This document shows positions 47,997-61,141 of a stretch of DNA of 64,000 nt, piece by piece (positions within the stretch are counted from its first letter, which is position 1; every line of letters starts with the position of its first letter). The notes under the pieces are model-generated. The model made no database searches. It had not been told where the DNA came from and was given only the letters and a program-made list of their open reading frames with translations. Origin of the DNA: an uncultured Oscillospiraceae bacterium (GTDB lineage Bacteria; Bacillota; Clostridia; Oscillospirales; Oscillospiraceae). A program made the position numbers and the translations under genes. The stretch spans positions 1 through 64,000 of the forward strand of contig CALXDM010000003.1 of assembly GCA_944387065.1 (NCBI GenBank), written 5' to 3'.

Positions 47997-49463
47997 ATGG
48001 AACTGAGACAACTCACCGCCTTGGAGCTGGGGGCGGTCATCCGCAGGGGCGAGGTGTCAGTGGCCGAGGCGGCCCAGGCGGCGCTGGCGGCCATCGAGGC
48101 GGAGGACGGGGCGCTCAACAGCTTCATCACCGTAGAGGGGGAGCGGGCGCTGGAGCGGGCGGCCCAGCTGCAACCAGGGGTGAAGGAGGCCCAAAGCCCG
48201 CTATACGGCGTGCCCATGGCCCTGAAGGACAACATCTGCACCAAGGGGATCAAGACCACCTGCGCCTCCAAGATCCTGGGGGACTTCCGCCCCCCCTATG
48301 ACGCCACCGTGGTGGAGCGGCTGGCGGCGGCGGGGGCGTTGGGGCTGGGCAAGCTGAACCTGGACGAGTTTGCCATGGGTTCCACCAGCGAGACCTCTTG
48401 GTACGGCCCCACCCGCAACCCCTGGGATCCGGACCGGGCCCCCGGAGGCTCCTCCGGCGGGGCGGCGGCGGCGGTGGCGGCGGGGCTGAGCTGGTATGCC
48501 GTGGGGTCGGATACCGGCGGCTCCATCCGGCAGCCAGCGGCCCATTGCGGCGTCACCGGGATCAAGCCCACCTATGGCACCGTCTCCCGATATGGGCTGG
48601 TCGCCTACGCCTCCTCCCTGGACCAGATGGGCCCGGTGTGCCGGGACGCGGGGGACTGCGCGGCGGTGCTGGATGTGCTCCAGGGCCGGGACCGGCGGGA
48701 CGCCACCAGCCTGGACGGGGACTACGGCCACCTGCTGGAGAGCCTGAGCGGCGACGTTCGGGGGCTGCGGGTGGGCCTGCCGGCCGAATGTTTCGGGGAC
48801 GGCCTGGACGGCCAGGTGCGCCAGGCGGTGCTGGCGGCGGCGGACGTGCTGAAAAGCCGGGGGGCCCAGCTGGTGGAGTTGTCCCTGCCGGCGCTGGAGT
48901 ACGGGGTGCCCGCCTACTATATCATCGCCGCGGCGGAGGCCTCCTCCAACCTGGCCCGGTTTGACGGGGTGAAGTACGGCTGGCGGGCGCAGGGGTACGG
49001 GGACCTGTCCGAGCTGTACCACAAGACCCGGACCCAGGGGTTCGGCCTGGAGGTGAAGCGGCGCATCCTGCTGGGCTCCTTCGTGCTCAGCGCCGGATAC
49101 TACGAGGCCTACTACCGCAAGGCCCTGCAGGTGAAGGCGGTGATCAAGGGGGCCTTTGACGAGGCCTTTGCCCGCTGTGACCTGCTGCTCACCCCGGTGG
49201 CCCCCGCCACCGCCCCCCGCCTGGGGGAGAGCCTGGGCGACCCGCTGGAGATGTACCTGGGGGATGTGTACACTGTGCCGGCCAACCTGGCGGGGCTACC
49301 CGGACTGTCCATGCCCTGTGGTTTTGACCGGCAGGGGTTGCCCATCGGGGCCCAGCTCATCGGCCCCCACTTTGGAGAGGGCAGGCTGCTCAACGCCGCC
49401 TATGCCTTCCAGCAGGACACCCACTATCACAAGCAGACGCCGAAAGGGGGGCAGCGGGCATGA
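47997..49463 (+). CDS. gatA: Asp-tRNA(Asn)/Glu-tRNA(Gln) amidotransferase subunit A
   Basis: This 488-residue amidase-signature subunit releases ammonia from glutamine for the transamidation. It has the catalytic Lys in MALKDNICT (Lys77), the Gly/Ser loop PGGSSGGAAAAVAAG and the cis-Ser/Ser pair region GSDTGGSIRQPAAHCG. ATG 47997 has GGGGAG upstream. It overlaps gatB by 4 nt. Confidence 0.97.
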   Translation: MELRQLTALELGAVIRRGEVSVAEAAQAALAAIEAEDGALNSFITVEGERALERAAQLQPGVKEAQSPLYGVPMALKDNICTKGIKTTCASKILGDFRPPYDATVVERLAAAGALGLGKLNLDEFAMGSTSETSWYGPTRNPWDPDRAPGGSSGGAAAAVAAGLSWYAVGSDTGGSIRQPAAHCGVTGIKPTYGTVSRYGLVAYASSLDQMGPVCRDAGDCAAVLDVLQGRDRRDATSLDGDYGHLLESLSGDVRGLRVGLPAECFGDGLDGQVRQAVLAAADVLKSRGAQLVELSLPALEYGVPAYYIIAAAEASSNLARFDGVKYGWRAQGYGDLSELYHKTRTQGFGLEVKRRILLGSFVLSAGYYEAYYRKALQVKAVIKGAFDEAFARCDLLLTPVAPATAPRLGESLGDPLEMYLGDVYTVPANLAGLPGLSMPCGFDRQGLPIGAQLIGPHFGEGRLLNAAYAFQQDTHYHKQTPKGGQRA

Positions 49464-52370: not shown

Positions 52371-53264
52371 TCAGCGGCTCAGCTGGGCAAAGTGGCCGCA
52401 AATGTGTTCAAAGAGCTGGGCGGAGGCGAAAGAGTGGTAGCCCTGTTTGCGCCGGATGATGGCGATGTCCCATTGCAGGCGGGGCTCCAGGGGGACGATG
52501 GCCAGCTTGTCGGTCAGGTTGTGCTGGATGAGGGGCCGGGGCAGCAGGGCGATGCACTCCTGCATCTCCACCATCTTGAAGGTGAAGCCGGGCATGAGGC
52601 TCTTGTAGGCGATGCGGGGGGAGAAGCCGCTGGCGGCGCACATCTGGATGAAGGTGTCGTGGAGGGTGGCCGTCTCGCTGAAGGTGAGGATGCATTGGCC
52701 CTCCAGGTCCCGGATATGTACGCTGGGCATATAGGCGAAGGGGTGATCCTTCCAAACCACCAGCTGGCACACGTCCCGCACCAGCACATGGGTCTCAAAC
52801 CGGGTGGGGTTCTCCACCGGCAGCATCACCAGCCCCAGGTCTGCCTTACCCGAGCCCACGGAACTGGCCACCAGCTTGGAGCCTTCCTCCACCACGCTGA
52901 TGTCAATGCCGGGGAATTTTTGGTGGAAGTCGGAGAACAGGGCGGGGAAGTACATATCCAGCAGGACGCCCGGGATGTTCAGCCGGACCTCCCCGGTCTT
53001 GATGGAGCGCACATCGGACATGACCTGAAAGATCTCGTCGTACTGGATGAGGAAGGCCTGGGCCCGCTCGTACAGGGCGCGGCCCGCGTCGGTCAGGTGG
53101 AAGCTCTTACTGGTGCGCTCGATGAGCAGGATGTTCAGCGATTCCTCCAACTGCTTGATGGCCCGGGTCAGCATGGGCTGGGTCACATACAGCTGGGCGG
53201 CGGCCCGGGTGAAGCTCTCCTGCTGTACTACGGCGACAAAATATTTCAAGTGTTGAATTTCCAT
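52371..53264 (-). CDS. LysR-family transcriptional regulator
   Basis: The protein is 297 residues long. The N-terminal winged helix MEIQHLKYFVAVVQQESFTR, then LYVTQPMLTRAIKQLEESLN, is typical LysR. The ligand-binding domain has IPGVLLDMYFPALFSDFHQK and VSSVGSGKADLGLVML-type segments. ATG 53264 matches the family start, and ATG 53276 is an alternative. It is divergent from the CoA-transferase operon with a 363-nt gap holding several palindromes, so it probably activates that operon in response to its substrate. Confidence 0.88.
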   Translation of the reverse strand: MEIQHLKYFVAVVQQESFTRAAAQLYVTQPMLTRAIKQLEESLNILLIERTSKSFHLTDAGRALYERAQAFLIQYDEIFQVMSDVRSIKTGEVRLNIPGVLLDMYFPALFSDFHQKFPGIDISVVEEGSKLVASSVGSGKADLGLVMLPVENPTRFETHVLVRDVCQLVVWKDHPFAYMPSVHIRDLEGQCILTFSETATLHDTFIQMCAASGFSPRIAYKSLMPGFTFKMVEMQECIALLPRPLIQHNLTDKLAIVPLEPRLQWDIAIIRRKQGYHSFASAQLFEHICGHFAQLSR

Positions 53265-53297
53265 AATGGCATCCATACCCTTTTTTCATATAGCTCT

Positions 53298-53303
53298 ATT
53301 ATA
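53298..53303 (-). promoter_or_regulatory. Likely -10 box of the LysR gene
   Basis: A perfect TATAAT on the reverse strand lies 34 nt before the LysR start. No good -35 box is seen at 17 nt, which is common for regulated LysR promoters. Confidence 0.45.
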
Positions 53304-53379
53304 TCTGCAAGATGCATAAAAAGCACAGAAAAAAATCAACAAAATTTGATTGATAAAATTGTCTAAATGGGGCAAAAGG

Positions 53380-53416
53380 ATAACCAGAGAGGAATGCTTC
53401 CATTTTTTCTGGTTAT
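53380..53416. promoter_or_regulatory. Nested inverted repeat in LysR/CoA-transferase intergenic region
   Basis: ATAACCAGA (53380-53388) pairs perfectly with TCTGGTTAT (53408-53416), and GGAA-TGC-TTCC lies inside. TATAAT (53414-53419) overlaps the right arm. It may be a regulator-binding site or a stem-loop in the leader. Confidence 0.5.
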
Positions 53417-53445
53417 AATGCTATCAAAAAGACACAAAAAATGAA

Positions 53446-53478
53446 AATATAATTGTTATATTCTGTGCAATCTATAAT
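53446..53478 (+). promoter_or_regulatory. Palindrome and -10 box upstream of the CoA-transferase operon
   Basis: AATATAA-TTG-TTATATT (53446-53462) is a perfect inverted repeat. It is followed by a perfect TATAAT (53473-53478). There is no consensus -35, and the palindrome sits where the activator would touch polymerase, fitting a LysR-activated promoter. Confidence 0.5.
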
Positions 53479-53627
53479 ACTTTCGCAAGATACCAGACCA
53501 ATTTGGTGATTTTACAAAGGAAACGCCCGGGGAGTATACTCAAACCAAAGGCACGGAGAAGGAACACCTGGGCCCGTGCCTTCCCCGGGAGGGGAATCCA
53601 AATCTAAATCGGAAGGGGAGTGGTGGA

Positions 53628-55178
53628 ATGCCAAAGATCCTATCGGCGCGGGAAGCGGTTCGCCAGTATATTCAGGACGGCGCCACGGTCGCGTTCGGCG
53701 GGTTCGTAGGGGCCATGGTTCCAGAAGAGGTGAACAAAACCATCCAAGAGCTGTTTTTGGAAGAGGGCTCGCCCAAGGGATTGACCGCGATCTACGCGGC
53801 CGGACAGGGCGACTCGGACACCAGGGGACTCAACCATCTGGGAGAGGAAGGTCTGGTGGAGCGGGTCATCGGCGGGCACTGGGGCCTTGTTCCCCGGCTG
53901 CAAAAGCTGGCGCTGGAGAACAAGTGCGCGGCCTACAACTATCCCCAGGGCGTGATCTCCCAATGCTTCCGGGACATCGCGGCGGGCAAGGTGGGCGTGG
54001 TCACCCATGTGGGCCTGAAGACCTTTGCCGACCCCAGGCTGGAGGGCGGGATGCTCAACGAGAAGGCCCGCCAGGCCGGCCCCCTGGTGGAGCTGATCCA
54101 AATCGCCGGCCAGGAACGGCTGCTGTACAAGGCCATTCCCATTGACGTGGCGGTGATCCGCGCCACCTATGCTGACACCCACGGCAACTGTACCTTCCAC
54201 AAAGAAGGGGCCTTCTCCGAGACGCTGGCCATCGCCCAGGCGGCCCGCAACAGCGGAGGCAAGGTCATCGTCCAGGTAGAGCAGGTGGTGGAGTACGGTA
54301 ACCTGGATACCCGCCTGGTGCGCCTGCCCGGCATCTATGTGGACGCCATCGTGGTGGCCGACCCGGCCAACCATATGCAGACCTTCGGCACCCAGTACAA
54401 CCCCGCCTACTCTGGTGAGGCCCGAGTGCCTGTCAGTTCCCTGAAGCCCATGGAGCTGGATCAGCGCAAGATCGTGGCCCGCCGGGCCGCCATGGAGTTG
54501 GTGCCAAACGCCATCACCAACCTGGGCATCGGAATGCCTGAGGGGGTGGCCTCCATCGCGGCGGAGGAGGGGCTGGAGGGCATGGTGCTCACCACCGAGG
54601 CCGGTACCATCGGCGGCATCCCCGCCGGCGGCAAGGACTTTGGCGTGACCACCAACCCAGACTGCCTGCTGGACCAGCCCTCCCAGTTCGACTTCTACGA
54701 CGGGGGCGGGCTGGACGTGGCCTTCCTAGGTCTGGCCCAGGCCGACAAGCAGGGCAACATCAACGTGTCCAAGTTCGGGCCCAAGATTGCCGGCTGCGGT
54801 GGCTTTATCAACATTACCCAGAACGCCAAAAAGGTCATCTTCTGCGGTACCTTTACCGCTGGCGGGCTGAAGCTGGGGGTGGAGAACGGCCAGCTGCGCA
54901 TCCTGCAGGAGGGCAAGTCCAAAAAGTTCCTGGACCAGGTGGAGCAGGTCACCTTCTCCGGAGAGTACGCCATGGAGAAGGGGCAGCCTGTGCTGTATAT
55001 CACCGAGCGGGCGGTGTTCCGGCTCACCGACCAGGGCATGGAGCTGATCGAGGTGGCGCCCGGCGTGGATCTGCAGAAGGATGTGCTGGACCTGATGGAT
55101 TTCAAGCCTATCGTCCGGGACGTCAAGCAGATGGACCCGCGCATCTTCCGGCCCGAGCCCATGGGCCTGACCCTGTGA
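53628..55178 (+). CDS. Acyl-CoA:acetate/3-ketoacid CoA-transferase (propionate CoA-transferase type)
   Basis: This 516-residue single-chain enzyme joins the alpha and beta halves of family I CoA-transferases. It has GATVAFGGFVGAMVPEEV near the N-terminus, GMPEGVASIAAEEG, and the catalytic glutamate in VLTTEAGTIGGIP (Glu324). It moves CoA between short-chain acyl-CoA and free acids. GGAAGGGGAG precedes ATG 53628. It is followed by a GntP-type permease and a MaoC hydratase. The exact acid is unknown. Confidence 0.92.
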   Translation: MPKILSAREAVRQYIQDGATVAFGGFVGAMVPEEVNKTIQELFLEEGSPKGLTAIYAAGQGDSDTRGLNHLGEEGLVERVIGGHWGLVPRLQKLALENKCAAYNYPQGVISQCFRDIAAGKVGVVTHVGLKTFADPRLEGGMLNEKARQAGPLVELIQIAGQERLLYKAIPIDVAVIRATYADTHGNCTFHKEGAFSETLAIAQAARNSGGKVIVQVEQVVEYGNLDTRLVRLPGIYVDAIVVADPANHMQTFGTQYNPAYSGEARVPVSSLKPMELDQRKIVARRAAMELVPNAITNLGIGMPEGVASIAAEEGLEGMVLTTEAGTIGGIPAGGKDFGVTTNPDCLLDQPSQFDFYDGGGLDVAFLGLAQADKQGNINVSKFGPKIAGCGGFINITQNAKKVIFCGTFTAGGLKLGVENGQLRILQEGKSKKFLDQVEQVTFSGEYAMEKGQPVLYITERAVFRLTDQGMELIEVAPGVDLQKDVLDLMDFKPIVRDVKQMDPRIFRPEPMGLTL

Positions 55179-55238
55179 GGGGGATTGCCTGCTGATCTGA
55201 GCGCGGAGAGAAATTCTAATTCAGAGGAGGAAAGACGC

Positions 55239-56573
55239 ATGAGTTTGTTTGGTATCGTTCTGGGTCTTGTCCTGCTGATGGTGCTGGCCTATCGGGGCTA
55301 CTCCATCATCTGGGTAGCCCCTGTGTGTGCCATCGTGGTGGCCGTGTTCAGCGGCTACGCCATCCTGGACGCCTACATCGGCGACTACATGGCAGGCATG
55401 GCCGACTATGTGCTGCAGTGGTTCCCCGCCTTCTTCCTGGGGGCGGTGTACGGCAAGGTGATGGACATGACCGGCTCTGCCCGCAGCCTGGGCAACGCCT
55501 TGGTCAAGCTCATCGGCTCCCGGTTCGCCGTAGCGGCGGTGGTCATCCCCTGCCTGGCCATGACTTACGGCGGCATCTCCCTGTTCGTGGTGGTGTTCGT
55601 CATCTACCCCATGGGCTACTCCATCTACCGGGCTGCCGACCTGCCCCGTACCCTGCTGCCCGGCGCCATCGCCACCGGTGCGTTTGGCATCACCATGACC
55701 GCCATCCCCGGCACGCCCCAGATTCAGAACATCATCCCCACCGAGTACTACGGAACCAACGCTATGGCGGCCCCTCTGCTGTCCATCGTGGCTGTGATCG
55801 TGATGTTCGTCCCCGCCTATGCCTATCTGGAGTGGCGTGCCCACAACGCCCGGAAGAAGGGCATGCACTTTGTGCCAGACCCCAAGCATAAGGAAGTGGA
55901 TCACGACGAAAAGGACCTGCCCTCCTGGCACTGGGTCACCGGCCTGATCCCGCTGATCGTCGTGGTGCTGATGCTCAACCTGTTCCCCTACCTGATGCGG
56001 GAGTACGCCGGCATCGACTTCACCACCAGCCAGTCCATGGTCATTGCCCTGGTGTGCGGCATCCTGGTGGCCTGTCTGCTCAACCTCAACCAGGTTAAGA
56101 CTCTGCTGCCCGCCATCAACGAGGGAGCCAACGGCTCCATGGGCGCCATCATGAACACCGCCTGCGCGGTGGGCTTCGGCTCCGTGGTCAAGGTGGTGCC
56201 CGGCTTCGCCGTGCTGACCAACCTGACTCTGAACATGCCCGGCTCCATCCTGTTCTCCGAGGCGGTGGCGGTCAACCTGCTGGCCGGCGCCACGGGCTCC
56301 GCTTCCGGCGGTATGTCCATCGCTCTGGAGGCCCTGGGCCCCCGGTTTGCCGAGATGGCCGCGGGCAACCAGGCCATGCTGGAGAACCTGCACCGTATCG
56401 CCTCCATCTCCTCCGGCGGTCTGGACACCTTGCCCCACAATGGCGCGGTGCTCACCCTGCTGGCCGTGTCCAACTGTACCCACAAGGAGTCCTATATCGA
56501 CATCTGCGTGACCACTTGTATCATCCCGCTGGTGGCCTCCCTGTTGCTGGCCCTCATCTGGGGCCTGTTCTGA
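55239..56573 (+). CDS. GntP-family organic acid permease
   Basis: This 444-residue membrane protein has about twelve helices and the start VLGLVLLMVLAYRGYSIIWV typical of the GntP/hydroxybutyrate permease group. It contains AFGITMTAIPGTPQIQNIIP and ATGSASGGMSIALEALG. It imports a small carboxylate with protons. Its place between a CoA-transferase and an enoyl-CoA hydratase suggests a hydroxy acid such as 3-hydroxybutyrate. AGAGGAGG precedes ATG 55239. Confidence 0.88.
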   Translation: MSLFGIVLGLVLLMVLAYRGYSIIWVAPVCAIVVAVFSGYAILDAYIGDYMAGMADYVLQWFPAFFLGAVYGKVMDMTGSARSLGNALVKLIGSRFAVAAVVIPCLAMTYGGISLFVVVFVIYPMGYSIYRAADLPRTLLPGAIATGAFGITMTAIPGTPQIQNIIPTEYYGTNAMAAPLLSIVAVIVMFVPAYAYLEWRAHNARKKGMHFVPDPKHKEVDHDEKDLPSWHWVTGLIPLIVVVLMLNLFPYLMREYAGIDFTTSQSMVIALVCGILVACLLNLNQVKTLLPAINEGANGSMGAIMNTACAVGFGSVVKVVPGFAVLTNLTLNMPGSILFSEAVAVNLLAGATGSASGGMSIALEALGPRFAEMAAGNQAMLENLHRIASISSGGLDTLPHNGAVLTLLAVSNCTHKESYIDICVTTCIIPLVASLLLALIWGLF

Positions 56574-56607
56574 GCAACACAACGTGAAGAAAGGACGGGA
56601 TCATTCC

Positions 56608-57018
56608 ATGACGATTCAAGAACTGAAGGTTGGCGACAGCGCCAGCATGGCCAAGACCGTCACCGAGACCGACGTGTACCTGTTTGCCGGGATCACCGGG
56701 GACCTGAACCCCGCCCATGTCAACGAGCAGGCCTCCAGCCAGACGTCCTTTGGCGGGCGCATTGCCCATGGCATCCTCAGCGCCGGGTTTATCTCCGCAG
56801 TACTGGCTATGAAACTGCCCGGCCCGGGCACCATCTATCTGGGTCAGGAGCTGAAATTCACAAAGCCTGTCCGTTTTGGAGATACGGTGACCGCCACCTG
56901 CACGGTCACTGAGATCGTGGCGGAGAAGAACATTGTCAAGCTGGAGACCGTGTGCACCAATCAGAACGGGGATGTGGTCATCAAGGGAATGGCCACCGTC
57001 ATGCCCCCTAAACCGTGA
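56608..57018 (+). CDS. MaoC-type (R)-enoyl-CoA hydratase
   Basis: This 136-residue hotdog-fold protein has the hydratase motif FAGITGDLNPAHVNEQAS (catalytic Asp and His) and RIAHGILSAGFISAVLA. It adds or removes water between (R)-3-hydroxyacyl-CoA and enoyl-CoA. AAAGGACGGG precedes ATG 56608. It is the last gene of the CoA-transferase operon and is followed by a strong terminator. Confidence 0.92.
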   Translation: MTIQELKVGDSASMAKTVTETDVYLFAGITGDLNPAHVNEQASSQTSFGGRIAHGILSAGFISAVLAMKLPGPGTIYLGQELKFTKPVRFGDTVTATCTVTEIVAEKNIVKLETVCTNQNGDVVIKGMATVMPPKP

Positions 57019-57044
57019 CAAAGGGTGGGGCCTCTGCCCCCATG

Positions 57045-57090
57045 AAAAAGTCGGAGCCCGGGCGCGCAAGCGCCCGGGCTCCGACTTTTT
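57045..57090 (+). terminator. Terminator of the CoA-transferase operon
   Basis: A perfect 21-bp stem (57045-57065 with 57070-57090) with a GCAA tetraloop has A and T runs at its base, so it can act in both directions. Confidence 0.92.
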
Positions 57091-57129
57091 GCCTGACGCA
57101 CCCTCCGGCGGTAGAGGGGAGACAGGGGG

Positions 57130-57239: not shown

Positions 57240-59213
57240 ATGAAGAAACAGATGCTTGCCTTATCAGTTGGGTTTGCCCTGCTGCTGGCGCTGTCCACCC
57301 CTGCCATGGCGGCCCAGGCCGCTCCGGGGGAAACTGTCGCGCCCGGTCAGGTGGTGACCGCCGATGTCCGGGGCCTGGCGGCAGCTGCCGGCGGTACAGT
57401 CCAGCTGGCGGCGGGGAACCATGTGCGGTGGATTGACCGGGTGGATCTGCCGGCAGAGGTGGACGACTTCTATGCGAGACTGGTGGAGGCGGTGGACAAC
57501 GACGGGGTGGGCGATTGGTTGATCGACCCGGCCACCTACGGCGAGATGGCAGAAGGGGTAGCGGGCTATCGGGTGGCGGCTGCGCTCACCGTGCAGGGCC
57601 GGCTGAGCCAGGCGGAGGCCACCGCCTATTTGGATAATCTGTGGGCGGCCCTGGGGGCCTTTGACCGGGACGTGCCCGAGGTGTTCTGGCTGTCAGGCAC
57701 CTACACCCTGTTCTATGTGTACAGTGGCGGGAGCACCACCTTTTACCTGGTGCTGTCCAGCGAGGACGGATACGGCATCCTGGACAGGAGCTATCCCACC
57801 GCGGCCCAGCTGCGAGCGGCCATTTCTCAGCGGGACCAGGCGGTGGAGGCCATCCTAGCTGGCACGGTGACGACAGGGGAGGGGGAGGTGCTGCACTATG
57901 ACGCGGGGGCGTCCCGCCAGGCGAACCTGCGCTACTTCAATGCCTGGCTGACCCTGCACAACGAGTACAACACCTCCGCCGGGGCGGATCCCTTCCACGC
58001 CACGGAGTGCCTGAGCGCCTTGACGGGCAGCACGGGGGAGGCCGGCCCGGTGTGCGAGGGCTACACCCGGGCCTTCAAGCTGTTGTGCGACACGGTGGGC
58101 ATCCCCTGCGTGCTGGTTGACGGCCCGGCCTACAACGCGGCGGGGGTGGCCAGCGGGCATATGTGGAACTATGTACAGATGGAAGACGGTGGATGGTACG
58201 GAGTGGATGTGACTTGGAATGACCCGGTGGGGGGCTCCCCGGGGGCGGTCTCAGGCCTGGAGCGGGAGGACTACCTGCTGGTGGGGGCGCAGACGGTGGT
58301 GGGACGGCTGGCCTTTTCCGACTCCCATGTGGAGCAGAACTGGGTTTTTGAGGGCGGGGCCCGCTATCCCAACGGACCTGAGCTGAGCCAAACGGCCTAT
58401 GACCCGGCGGGGGTGGCCGCAGGCTATGCCGTCATGGTGCCTCAGGTGGACTATGGCTGGGTGGAGGCCAGCCCGGCCCTTGCCCCAGCAGGGGCCACAG
58501 TGACCCTGACCGCATATCCAGACGAGGGCTATATGCTGTCCAGCCTGTTCGTGGTGGACGGGCAGGGGCAGCGGGTGGAGGGAGTGAGCCACCCCGACGG
58601 GCGCTATACCTTTGCCATGCCAGCGGTGGCGGTGACGGTCCATGCCGTCTTTGCCCCCGAGGGGACCGATCTGCCCTTCCGGGATGTGGCCGCCGTCCAC
58701 TGGTTCTATGACGAGGTGCGCTATGTGTGGGACAGCGGCCTGATGCAGGGCACCGGGGCGGATCGCTTTGGGCCCGACGTGACCACCACCCGGGCCCAAC
58801 TGGTCACAACCCTATACCGCTTGGCGGGCCAGCCGGCGGTGGCGGGGGCCAACCCCTTTGCCGACGCGACCGCCGCCTGGTATGCCGATGCGGTGGCATG
58901 GGCCAGCCAGAACGGCATCGTGGAGGGGTACAGCGCCACCCAGTTTGGCCCCGAGGACGTTGTGACCCGGGAGCAGCTGGCGGCCATTCTGTATCGCTAC
59001 GCCGGGTGCGCTGGCTATGACCAGACCGGGCTGGGCAGCCTGGCTGGCTTTGCCGACGGGGGCGCGGTGTCCGGGTGGGCGCGGCAGGCCATGACCTGGG
59101 CGGTGGGCCGGGGACTGATCCACGGCGTCGGCAGCTTGGCCGATCCCCAGGGATCTGCCACCCGGGCCCAGCTGGCAGCCGTCCTGACCCGTTTTTGCCA
59201 GGCCTATCCCTGA
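57240..59213 (+). CDS. Secreted transglutaminase-like protein with SLH domains
   Basis: The protein is 657 residues long. A signal peptide (KKQMLALSVGFALLLALSTP, cut near AMAA) is followed by an N-terminal region and then a transglutaminase-like core: Cys in GPVCEGYTRAFKLLCD, His in ASGHMWNYVQM and Asp in WYGVDVTWND. A beta repeat of the InlB/flagellin type (VEASPALAPAGATVTLTAYP, AMPAVAVTVHAVFAPEG) follows. Three SLH domains end the protein (FRDVAAVHWFYDEVRYVWDS; FADATAAWYADAVAWASQNG; FADGGAVSGWARQAMTWAVG) and anchor it to the wall. It probably cross-links or cuts wall proteins or peptides. Confidence 0.88.
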   Translation: MKKQMLALSVGFALLLALSTPAMAAQAAPGETVAPGQVVTADVRGLAAAAGGTVQLAAGNHVRWIDRVDLPAEVDDFYARLVEAVDNDGVGDWLIDPATYGEMAEGVAGYRVAAALTVQGRLSQAEATAYLDNLWAALGAFDRDVPEVFWLSGTYTLFYVYSGGSTTFYLVLSSEDGYGILDRSYPTAAQLRAAISQRDQAVEAILAGTVTTGEGEVLHYDAGASRQANLRYFNAWLTLHNEYNTSAGADPFHATECLSALTGSTGEAGPVCEGYTRAFKLLCDTVGIPCVLVDGPAYNAAGVASGHMWNYVQMEDGGWYGVDVTWNDPVGGSPGAVSGLEREDYLLVGAQTVVGRLAFSDSHVEQNWVFEGGARYPNGPELSQTAYDPAGVAAGYAVMVPQVDYGWVEASPALAPAGATVTLTAYPDEGYMLSSLFVVDGQGQRVEGVSHPDGRYTFAMPAVAVTVHAVFAPEGTDLPFRDVAAVHWFYDEVRYVWDSGLMQGTGADRFGPDVTTTRAQLVTTLYRLAGQPAVAGANPFADATAAWYADAVAWASQNGIVEGYSATQFGPEDVVTREQLAAILYRYAGCAGYDQTGLGSLAGFADGGAVSGWARQAMTWAVGRGLIHGVGSLADPQGSATRAQLAAVLTRFCQAYP

Positions 59214-59631
59214 AAAGACAACCCCACCGGCCATTTGGCCCGGTGGGGAGGGAATAGAAGGACCACCGCGGACACCCGCGGTGGTCTTTTGCTGGTGGAG
59301 CCCAGGTGAGCGTGTATTGGCCTATACCAGCTGGTAATTGCGGGACAGGCCCTGGGAGAGGATGGGATGGGCAAGCCTGAAATACCCGTCAGAATGGACA
59401 GAGGATCAGAGGGAAATTGTATCATTTGCTGAAAATGACTTTAGCTGAAAAAACTGGTTTCAATTTCCTGCTTGCTGCGTTATCATAAATTTACAAGAGA
59501 GAGCAGAAAGAGGACAGTTTCGTTGGGCAAGTTGCCGATCAATCCCTCCATCAGTTACTGCAACGGTTGAAATAGATGATCACCCGTAGCGGCTGGTTTT
59601 CAAAGTATGATTATTTGTGAGGTTAGTTTTG
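59214..59631. other. Intergenic region, terminator only
   Basis: It contains a GC hairpin CCCCACCGG/CCGGTGGGG (59222-59248) and the terminator at 59261-59290. The remaining 340 nt are AT-rich and show no gene or clear promoter. Composition changes at about 59400, marking the start of the lower-GC gene pair. Confidence 0.5.
59261..59290 (+). terminator. Terminator of the transglutaminase-SLH gene
   Basis: GACCACCGCG pairs perfectly with CGCGGTGGTC and TTTT follows. A nearly identical stem occurs at 60685-60714. Confidence 0.85.
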
Positions 59632-60747: not shown

Positions 60748-60877
60748 TCAGGCAAACTTCCGGTCGTAGAGCAGCGCGGCGATGAGTACCACAAAGCAGG
60801 AGCCCGCATTGTGCACCAGTGCCCCGGTGGTAGGGGTCAAAAGCCCCAGCAGGGAGAGCACGATGGCCACCAGGTGC
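60748..60877 (-). pseudogene. C-terminal stub of a heavy-metal P-type ATPase
   Basis: The reverse strand ends LVAIVLSLLGLLTPTTGALV, then HNAGSCFVVLIAALLYDRKF and a stop at 60748-60750. This is the last membrane helix pair of P1B-type metal ATPases (HN-G-S motif included). Only about 42 residues remain. Upstream it is cut at about 60877 by a fragment of the SLH gene, so the rest of the pump has been lost by rearrangement. Confidence 0.65.
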
Positions 60878-60878
60878 T

Positions 60879-61103
60879 ATGCCGGCGGGGGTGGTGACGG
60901 TCCACGCCGTCTTTGCCCACGAGGGGACCGATCTGCCCTTCCGGGATGTGGCCGCCGTCTACTGGTTCTATGACGAGATGCACTATGTGTGGGACAGCGG
61001 CCTGATGCAGGGCACCGGGGCGGATCGTTTTGGGCCCGACGTGACCACCACCCGGGCCCAGTTGGCAGCCGTCCTGACCCGCTTTTGCCAGGCCTATCCC
61101 TGA
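60879..61103 (+). pseudogene. Recombined fragment of the transglutaminase-SLH gene
   Basis: It encodes 74 residues, MPAGVVTVHAVFAHEGTDLP onward, nearly identical to residues about 460-525 of the protein at 57240 and then jumping straight to its last residues (TTTRAQLAAVLTRFCQAYP). The jump falls in a TRAQL sequence that occurs in the SLH domains of the parent, so unequal recombination between SLH repeats explains it. There is no signal peptide or ribosome site. It is a dead partial duplicate joined to a P-type ATPase stub. Confidence 0.8.
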
Positions 61104-61141
61104 AAAGTGACCCAACGCCTTTTGGCCAGCGGTGTGCTTGT

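What the first reader, a model, noticed from the sequence alone, without database searches (positions are those of the whole stretch)
52371..57090. LysR-controlled operon for uptake and activation of a short hydroxy acid
A CoA-transferase with intact Glu324, a GntP-type permease and an (R)-specific MaoC hydratase are adjacent, with a divergent LysR gene. Together they would import an (R)-3-hydroxy acid, attach CoA and dehydrate it to enoyl-CoA, feeding butyrate or similar metabolism. The combination with (R)-specific hydratase suggests 3-hydroxybutyrate or a related product from the gut.
Basis: inference. Interest (0 to 1): 0.55.

Follow-up and report, generated by a model that had tools for sequence, protein, structure and literature searches.

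The report
Likely 3-hydroxybutyrate uptake and activation operon
A small switchable gene set in a bacterium with a butyrate pathway probably takes up a short hydroxy acid, most likely the ketone body (R)-3-hydroxybutyrate, and feeds it into butyrate production, a chemistry already known from other anaerobes.

Summary
A LysR gene diverges from CoA-transferase – GntP-like permease – MaoC hydratase, ending at a strong hairpin at 57090. Catalytic residues are intact (transferase E324, hydratase D32/H37). Many relatives of the transferase, mainly in Clostridia, lie beside this permease type and either MaoC or a FabG/PhaB-like reductase: two ways to process an (R)-3-hydroxyacyl-CoA. Ilyobacter polytropus, reported to ferment 3-hydroxybutyrate to acetate and butyrate, has a MaoC 56% identical to this one in a gene run with CoA-transferase, thiolase, reductase, acyl-CoA dehydrogenase and EtfA; Cetobacterium has a similar set with this permease and transferase type. 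The window's genome has crt-hbd-bcd-etfBA and thiolase-atoDA, but no lactyl-CoA-type dehydratase. Best reading: (R)-3-hydroxybutyrate is imported, CoA-activated, dehydrated to crotonyl-CoA and reduced to butyrate. Substrate, direction and inducer are inferred; there is no assay, and some contexts do not fit. Unexpected: the transferase gene has a different ancestry from its permease and regulator neighbours (one clade rejected, AU p = 2.6e-6), so it seems to have been exchanged in place.

The parts
52371..53276 (-). LysR-type regulator, 301 aa, divergent from the operon; nearest NCBIfam model CidR (240 bits, cut-off 415)
53433..53467 (.). Interrupted inverted repeat CACAAAA...TTCTGTG in the divergent intergenic region; in L141/L142 the arms read GCACAAAA...TTTTGTGC
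   Evidence: reading of the alignment, no significance test
53463..53477 (.). Candidate LysR box (T-N11-A), CTGTGCAATCTATAA; identical in L140, two changes in L141 and L142
   Evidence: the better palindrome ATATAATTGTTATAT at 53447-53461 is not kept in the 98% relative L140
53511..53540 (+). Sigma-70-like promoter TTTACA-18-TATACT; similar TTTTACAAA...GTAT in L140, L141, L142 and L113
   Evidence: 3 sites found in the region, mean 1.4 in shuffles
53628..55178 (+). YdiF/Pct-type CoA-transferase, 516 aa; catalytic Glu324 codon at 54597-54599
55239..56573 (+). GntP-like permease, 444 aa
56608..57018 (+). MaoC/PhaJ-type hydratase, 136 aa; D32 (56701-56703), H37 (56716-56718)
57045..57090 (.). Terminator-like hairpin with A-run before and T-run after (could serve both strands)
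   Evidence: folded 57015-57100: -59 kcal/mol, z -7.25; not listed by the pattern scan

Best explanation
An inducible uptake-and-activation operon for a short (R)-3-hydroxy acid, most likely (R)-3-hydroxybutyrate (a host ketone body and the monomer of PHB). The permease imports it; the transferase moves CoA onto it from acetyl-CoA or butyryl-CoA through a glutamyl-CoA intermediate at E324 (family mechanism, recalled); MaoC removes water to give crotonyl-CoA; the genome's Bcd-EtfAB reduces this to butyryl-CoA, which can donate its CoA to the next molecule and leave as butyrate. Part of the crotonyl-CoA can also go through Crt, Hbd and thiolase to acetyl-CoA, so that MaoC plus Crt join the (R) acid to the (S)-specific butyrate pathway. 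LysR switches the operon on when the acid, or a related one, is present. Shown: genes, catalytic residues, operon architecture, pathway genes in the genome. Inferred: substrate, stereochemistry, direction, inducer.
For: (1) Of 95 loci (80 named relatives, 14 family stretches, the window) 43 hold the GntP-like permease and 23 the MaoC somewhere in the stretch. (2) Among 75 transferase loci with at least 2 kb on each side (of 96, one duplicate dropped), MaoC alone lies within 4 kb in 24, a FabG/PhaB-like SDR alone in 8, both in 0, neither in 43; both enzyme families act on (R)-3-hydroxyacyl thioesters (established knowledge). (3) Ilyobacter polytropus pILYOP01: SCFA transporter, CoA-transferase A/B, thiolase, FabG-like SDR, MaoC (56% identical to the window's), acyl-CoA dehydrogenase, EtfA; this species ferments 3-hydroxybutyrate to acetate and butyrate (PMC3035301, passages). 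Cetobacterium p2: GntP (37%), this transferase type (54%), thiolase, SDR, MaoC (60%), acyl-CoA dehydrogenase, EtfB, EtfA. (4) Transferase and MaoC beside an acyl-CoA dehydrogenase in L008, L015, L018, L120 and beside Etf alone in L014, L083, and both in a Fusobacteria plasmid. (5) Permease relatives sit next to a 3-hydroxybutyrate dehydrogenase in 4 of 13 records viewed from an even spread. (6) Own genome: crt, hbd, bcd, etfB, etfA, thiolase, atoDA. (7) MaoC residues S63, L66, V131 equal those of A. caviae PhaJ; that they set short-chain preference is recalled, not from a call.
Against: No biochemical or expression data. In the spread of permease relatives 8 of 13 viewed records show no hydroxybutyrate gene nearby and 1 shows an alcohol and a semialdehyde dehydrogenase, so at 36-45% identity the permease need not carry 3-hydroxybutyrate. 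The absence of loci with both MaoC and SDR is weak evidence: Fisher p 0.049 at 4 kb and 0.10 at 2.5 kb for all loci (0.007 and 0.024 for those with the permease), related loci are not independent, and Ilyobacter and Cetobacterium carry both. 43 of 75 transferase loci have neither. The genome also has four SDRs related to Ilyobacter's (best 42%), so an oxidative route from (R)-3-hydroxybutyryl-CoA is not excluded. Transferases of this family are broad and reversible. L007's MaoC has E in place of D32.
Confidence: 0.6

Rival explanations
1. Same logic, other acid: the operon serves (R)-3-hydroxyvalerate, 3-hydroxypropionate, crotonate or another short acid, with 3-hydroxybutyrate at best a side substrate.
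For: Broad substrate range in the transferase family (title of a C. necator Pct paper seen in the reference list of PMC6370202); permease relatives beside an iron alcohol dehydrogenase and CoA-acylating semialdehyde dehydrogenase in Acinetobacter; GntP-like, TRAP and SCFA-type transporters alternate around related genes.
Against: Thiolase, SDR, Hbd and Bcd neighbours point to C4 chemistry; the known 3-hydroxybutyrate fermenter has a related MaoC in a matching gene run.
Confidence: 0.22
2. Outward or exchange role: the transferase mainly releases butyrate (butyryl-CoA to acetate), and MaoC with the permease makes and exports (R)-3-hydroxybutyrate from crotonyl-CoA.
For: All steps are reversible; no AcetylCoA_hyd_C domain, hence no But-type enzyme, was found in the genome.
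Against: A thiolase-atoDA locus can already exchange CoA among short acids (function inferred from family); only 4 of 42 genus genomes, own included, have this transferase at 73% or more, which suits an optional catabolic trait better than a core exit step; a dedicated permease and divergent regulator.
Confidence: 0.12
3. Lactate or another 2-hydroxy acid is activated (acrylate-pathway type).
For: Characterised Pct enzymes act on lactate (recalled); the transferase is homologous to that group (one search shows YdiF; Pct itself was not compared).
Against: No 2-hydroxyacyl-CoA dehydratase (PF06050) found in a genome rated 99% complete; MaoC enzymes act on 3-hydroxyacyl, not 2-hydroxyacyl, thioesters (established knowledge).
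Confidence: 0.03

Closest known systems
3-Hydroxybutyrate fermentation of Ilyobacter polytropus (pILYOP01 gene run)
   Same: MaoC 56% identical, acyl-CoA dehydrogenase (68% to the window genome's Bcd), EtfA, CoA-transferase, transporter, thiolase
   Different: There a two-subunit CoA-transferase, an SCFA-type transporter and a FabG-like SDR together; here a single-chain transferase, a GntP-like permease, no SDR in the operon, and the redox genes elsewhere in the genome. That the Ilyobacter run does the fermentation is inferred
Cetobacterium somerae p2 cluster
   Same: Same transferase type (54%), GntP permease (37%), MaoC (60%)
   Different: Adds thiolase, SDR, acyl-CoA dehydrogenase and Etf; a TetR rather than a LysR gene; permease on the other strand
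Proteobacterial GntP permease - 3-oxoacid CoA-transferase - 3-hydroxybutyrate dehydrogenase clusters (Azospirillum, Klebsiella)
   Same: Related permease beside C4 hydroxy/oxo-acid genes
   Different: They probably oxidise the free acid first and then activate acetoacetate; here the hydroxy acid itself must be activated, since MaoC works on CoA esters
E. coli YdiF (PDB 2ahu) and propionate CoA-transferases
   Same: Full-length homology to YdiF, catalytic glutamate
   Different: Characterised propionate CoA-transferases were not compared by sequence; substrate not established here

Membership tests
YdiF/Pct-type single-chain CoA-transferase | CoA_trans domain and fused alpha/beta chain of about 520 aa | tested here: met
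   PF01144 2.1e-31; residues 4-515 align with YdiF 15-525, E 1.2e-139
YdiF/Pct-type single-chain CoA-transferase | Catalytic glutamate | tested here: met
   E324 aligned with YdiF E333; the role of that residue in Pct is recalled
Staphylococcal FadX (NF052271) | Curated score cut-off 750 bits | tested here: not met
   404 bits
MaoC/PhaJ-type (R)-specific enoyl-CoA hydratase | MaoC domain with Asp-His catalytic pair | tested here: met
   PF01575 86 bits, cut-off 27; D32 in 32 of 33 and H37 in 33 of 33 aligned rows, near-duplicates included
MaoC/PhaJ-type (R)-specific enoyl-CoA hydratase | (R) stereospecific hydration of C4-C6 enoyl-CoA | not testable with these tools
   Residues S63, L66, V131 equal 1iq6; no assay
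GntP permease family | Pfam PF02447 above gathering score | tested here: met
   24.8 bits, cut-off 22.5; PF03553 scores slightly better; no NCBIfam model matched
LysR-type regulator | HTH_1 plus LysR_substrate domains | tested here: met
CidR equivalog | Curated score cut-off 415 bits | tested here: not met
   240 bits
Ilyobacter-type 3-hydroxybutyrate gene run | MaoC with SDR, thiolase, acyl-CoA dehydrogenase and Etf side by side | tested here: not met
   These genes are not in the window operon; bcd, etf and thiolase lie elsewhere in the genome. It may work like the reductive half without being this gene run
Acrylate (lactate) pathway | 2-hydroxyacyl-CoA dehydratase | tested here: not met
   PF06050 gave no match in the own genome

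The most novel reading that the evidence does not exclude
The operon makes (R)-3-hydroxybutyrate a terminal electron acceptor: the transferase recycles CoA directly from butyryl-CoA onto incoming (R)-3-hydroxybutyrate, MaoC dehydrates it, and electron-bifurcating Bcd-EtfAB reduces crotonyl-CoA, so each ketone-body molecule removes reducing equivalents at no ATP cost and comes out as butyrate. A gut bacterium would thus turn a host ketone body into butyrate by a dedicated, inducible reductive branch, with the transferase gene exchanged among relatives while permease and hydratase stay.
Probability: 0.3. Interest if true: 0.65.

Novelty: new variant of a known kind. Interest (0 to 1): 0.4.

Why it matters
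If true, some butyrate producers can convert (R)-3-hydroxybutyrate, supplied by the host in ketosis or by PHB breakdown, to butyrate. Butyrate screens that follow the acetyl-CoA, lysine, glutarate and succinate semialdehyde routes (those named in PMC13106387, passages) would not look for it. The three-gene module gives a genomic marker for the trait, and the substrate question is testable with two purified enzymes.

Tried and rejected
Fusion hypothesis: 35 transferase ORFs of relatives exceed 600 aa; their extra C-terminal residues (about 130) did not match the window's MaoC, so this is no fusion evidence. Chance adjacency: rejected, conserved order in relatives. Perfect palindrome at 53447-53461 as the LysR site: set aside, not kept in L140. 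Lactate route: disfavoured. Strict MaoC/SDR exclusion as proof of substrate: weakened by p = 0.10 at 2.5 kb and by Ilyobacter and Cetobacterium, which have both. The Ilyobacter EtfB gene is not among the listed annotations; not pursued. Literature: nine searches; no listed title or abstract start describes this gene set, but several lists were capped (20 of 256, 12 of 27, 12 of 71, 15 of 18) and the library holds open-licence papers only, so this is no proof of absence. Six papers were seen as passages, the others as search listings. The A. caviae pocket-residue paper was sought and not found, so that point is recalled. Structure prediction and fold searches were not used.
Full report
What is there. 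Four genes lie at the stated coordinates: a LysR regulator (52371-53276, minus), and on the plus strand a 516-aa CoA-transferase (53628-55178), a 444-aa permease (55239-56573) and a 136-aa MaoC protein (56608-57018). The unit ends at a 21-pair hairpin flanked by A- and T-runs, 57045-57090 (z -7.25); the pattern scan did not list it. A promoter-like site (53511-53540) and a T-N11-A box (53463-53477) lie in the 351-bp A+T-rich divergent region (38% GC against 62% for the window) and are similar in close relatives.

Residues. E324 aligns with E333 of YdiF. MaoC D32 and H37 align with PhaJ of A. caviae (1iq6); the three positions I recall as chain-length determinants (63, 66, 131 in the chain with its Met) are identical to PhaJ. 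That recollection was not confirmed in the library. The permease belongs to the GntP group only distantly: 24.8 bits against 22.5 for PF02447, slightly better to PF03553; 14 of the 15 best plasmid homologues, of 101, are annotated GntP family permease.

Genome. The window lies in a 1.79-Mb assembly rated 99% complete. A search with each window protein found one transferase of this kind besides the two-subunit pair on C4, one MaoC and one permease. The genome holds crt, hbd, bcd, etfB and etfA together on C1 (L132), a second acyl-CoA dehydrogenase on C11, and a thiolase on C4 whose gene ends about 0.24 kb upstream of an atoDA-type pair. No 2-hydroxyacyl-CoA dehydratase and no AcetylCoA_hyd_C domain were found. 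Four SDRs related to Ilyobacter's were found, the best 42% identical. So crotonyl-CoA made by MaoC has a reductive way to butyryl-CoA and, through Crt and Hbd, an oxidative way to acetyl-CoA.

Neighbourhoods. With 14 family stretches and the window, 43 of 95 loci hold the permease type somewhere, 41 a sigma-54 activator, 23 the MaoC and 18 an SDR of any sort (flanks differ in length). In Clostridia a recurring order is sigma-54 activator, transferase, permease, then MaoC (L015, L018, L019, L021, L026, L027) or a FabG-like SDR (L013, L020, L023, L024). The two clostridial SDRs tested match FabG models best, with acetoacetyl-CoA reductase also scoring high but under its cut-off; a desulfobacterial one matches 3-hydroxybutyrate dehydrogenase best, also under its cut-off. 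Of 98 stretches, L121 has no transferase and L115 was dropped as a copy of L012; 75 of the remaining 96 had at least 2 kb on each side. Within 4 kb: MaoC only 24, SDR only 8, both 0, neither 43; among the 38 with the permease 20, 6, 0, 12 (Fisher p 0.049 and 0.007). Within 2.5 kb, 82 loci: 22, 9, 0, 51 (p 0.10); with the permease, 42: 19, 6, 0, 17 (p 0.024). Near-duplicates such as L140/window, L141/L142 and L015/L018 were kept and inflate these numbers.

The link to a known fermenter. The window MaoC's plasmid homologues include Ilyobacter polytropus pILYOP01 (56%). Its neighbourhood reads SCFA transporter (other strand), TetR, CoA-transferase A and B, thiolase, FabG-like SDR, MaoC, acyl-CoA dehydrogenase, EtfA. 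I. [quoted passage not shown] equation 2 3-hydroxybutyrate to 2 acetate and butyrate in PMC10096456, passages). That this gene run is responsible is my inference. Cetobacterium somerae p2 has the same enzymes with the permease and transferase type of the window, and a Fusobacteria plasmid has transferase, enoyl-CoA hydratase, permease, MaoC, acyl-CoA dehydrogenase, EtfB, EtfA. In this light the window operon is the reductive half, without the SDR.

Permease context. From 101 plasmid records with a permease homologue, 14 were drawn at even steps; 13 were viewed, one (H49) was not fetched. A 3-hydroxybutyrate dehydrogenase homologue lies beside it in 4 (L151, L152, L156, L157), an alcohol and a semialdehyde dehydrogenase in 1 (L154), nothing of the kind in 8 (L143, L153, L155, L158-L162). 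L152, L155 and L157 carry no annotation and were judged by the few proteins searched. Best-ranked records viewed besides: Azospirillum and Variovorax with 3-hydroxybutyrate dehydrogenase, Paracoccus with this transferase type directly downstream, Acinetobacter with the two dehydrogenases, Mycetohabitans without.

Distribution and mosaic ancestry. In the genus, 11 of 42 genomes have a transferase match at E 1e-20 or better, 4 of 42 (own included) at 73% identity or more. L140, L141 and L142 share the position after gatA-gatB-thiamine pyrophosphokinase-Hsp20 (gene names by reading except Hsp20). Against L141/L142 the window is 92-93% identical in the permease, 92-95% in MaoC, 78-80% in LysR, but only 73% in the transferase; L141, L142 and L005 are nearer in the transferase (77-79%) to L012/L114, whose permease is another type at 26-28%. 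A tree of 29 transferases rejects window, L140, L141, L142 and L005 as one clade (p-AU 2.6e-6; with L113 and L007 added 3.4e-4), while the permease tree groups the window, L140, L141 and L142 at 99/99 and adds L005 at 86/99, the LysR tree the five at 94/99, and the MaoC tree is unresolved (the permease tree's outgroups are very long branches). The groups were chosen after seeing identities, so the p values are generous. L141 and L142 are 99-100% identical over window positions 53256-54305 but 75-97% elsewhere apart from a 98-100% stretch in gatA at about 48000-48900, which suggests recombination over promoter and N-terminal transferase. So the activating enzyme seems to have been exchanged in place while importer and regulator stayed.

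Verdict. Gene content and arrangement are certain. That the unit handles an (R)-3-hydroxyacyl-CoA is well supported; that the acid is (R)-3-hydroxybutyrate is likely (0.6). The chemistry is known, the gene set is a variant. Interest 0.4.

Noticed in passing
53256-55178, compared with L140, L141, L142, L005: The CoA-transferase gene has another ancestry than the adjacent permease and regulator genes (73% against 78-93% identity to L141/L142); L141 and L142 are 99-100% identical over promoter and N-terminal transferase, otherwise so only in part of gatA.
   Followed up: partly
58613-58822 and 60875-61084; 59158-59217 and 61048-61107: The 3' part of the 657-aa gene at 57240-59213 (transglutaminase/S-layer type by reading) is partly duplicated about 2 kb downstream, 90-97% identical, apparently as a truncated remnant.
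   Followed up: partly
L022, L031, L050, L064 and others (35 ORFs over 600 aa): Many relatives of the transferase outside Clostridia carry about 130 extra C-terminal residues that matched none of the four window proteins.
   Followed up: no
L163 16749-18742 and L164 7228-8254: CidA/LrgA and LrgB genes lie near the 3-hydroxybutyrate-type gene runs of Ilyobacter and Cetobacterium, and the window's LysR scores best against CidR (under the cut-off): a possible shared link to short carboxylates.
   Followed up: no
G000 and the 41 other genus genomes: Genome sizes in the genus run from 1.7 to 5.8 Mb; the window's genome (1.79 Mb, 99% complete) and its nearest relative with the operon (G251, 1.8 Mb, 98%) are at the small end.
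   Followed up: no
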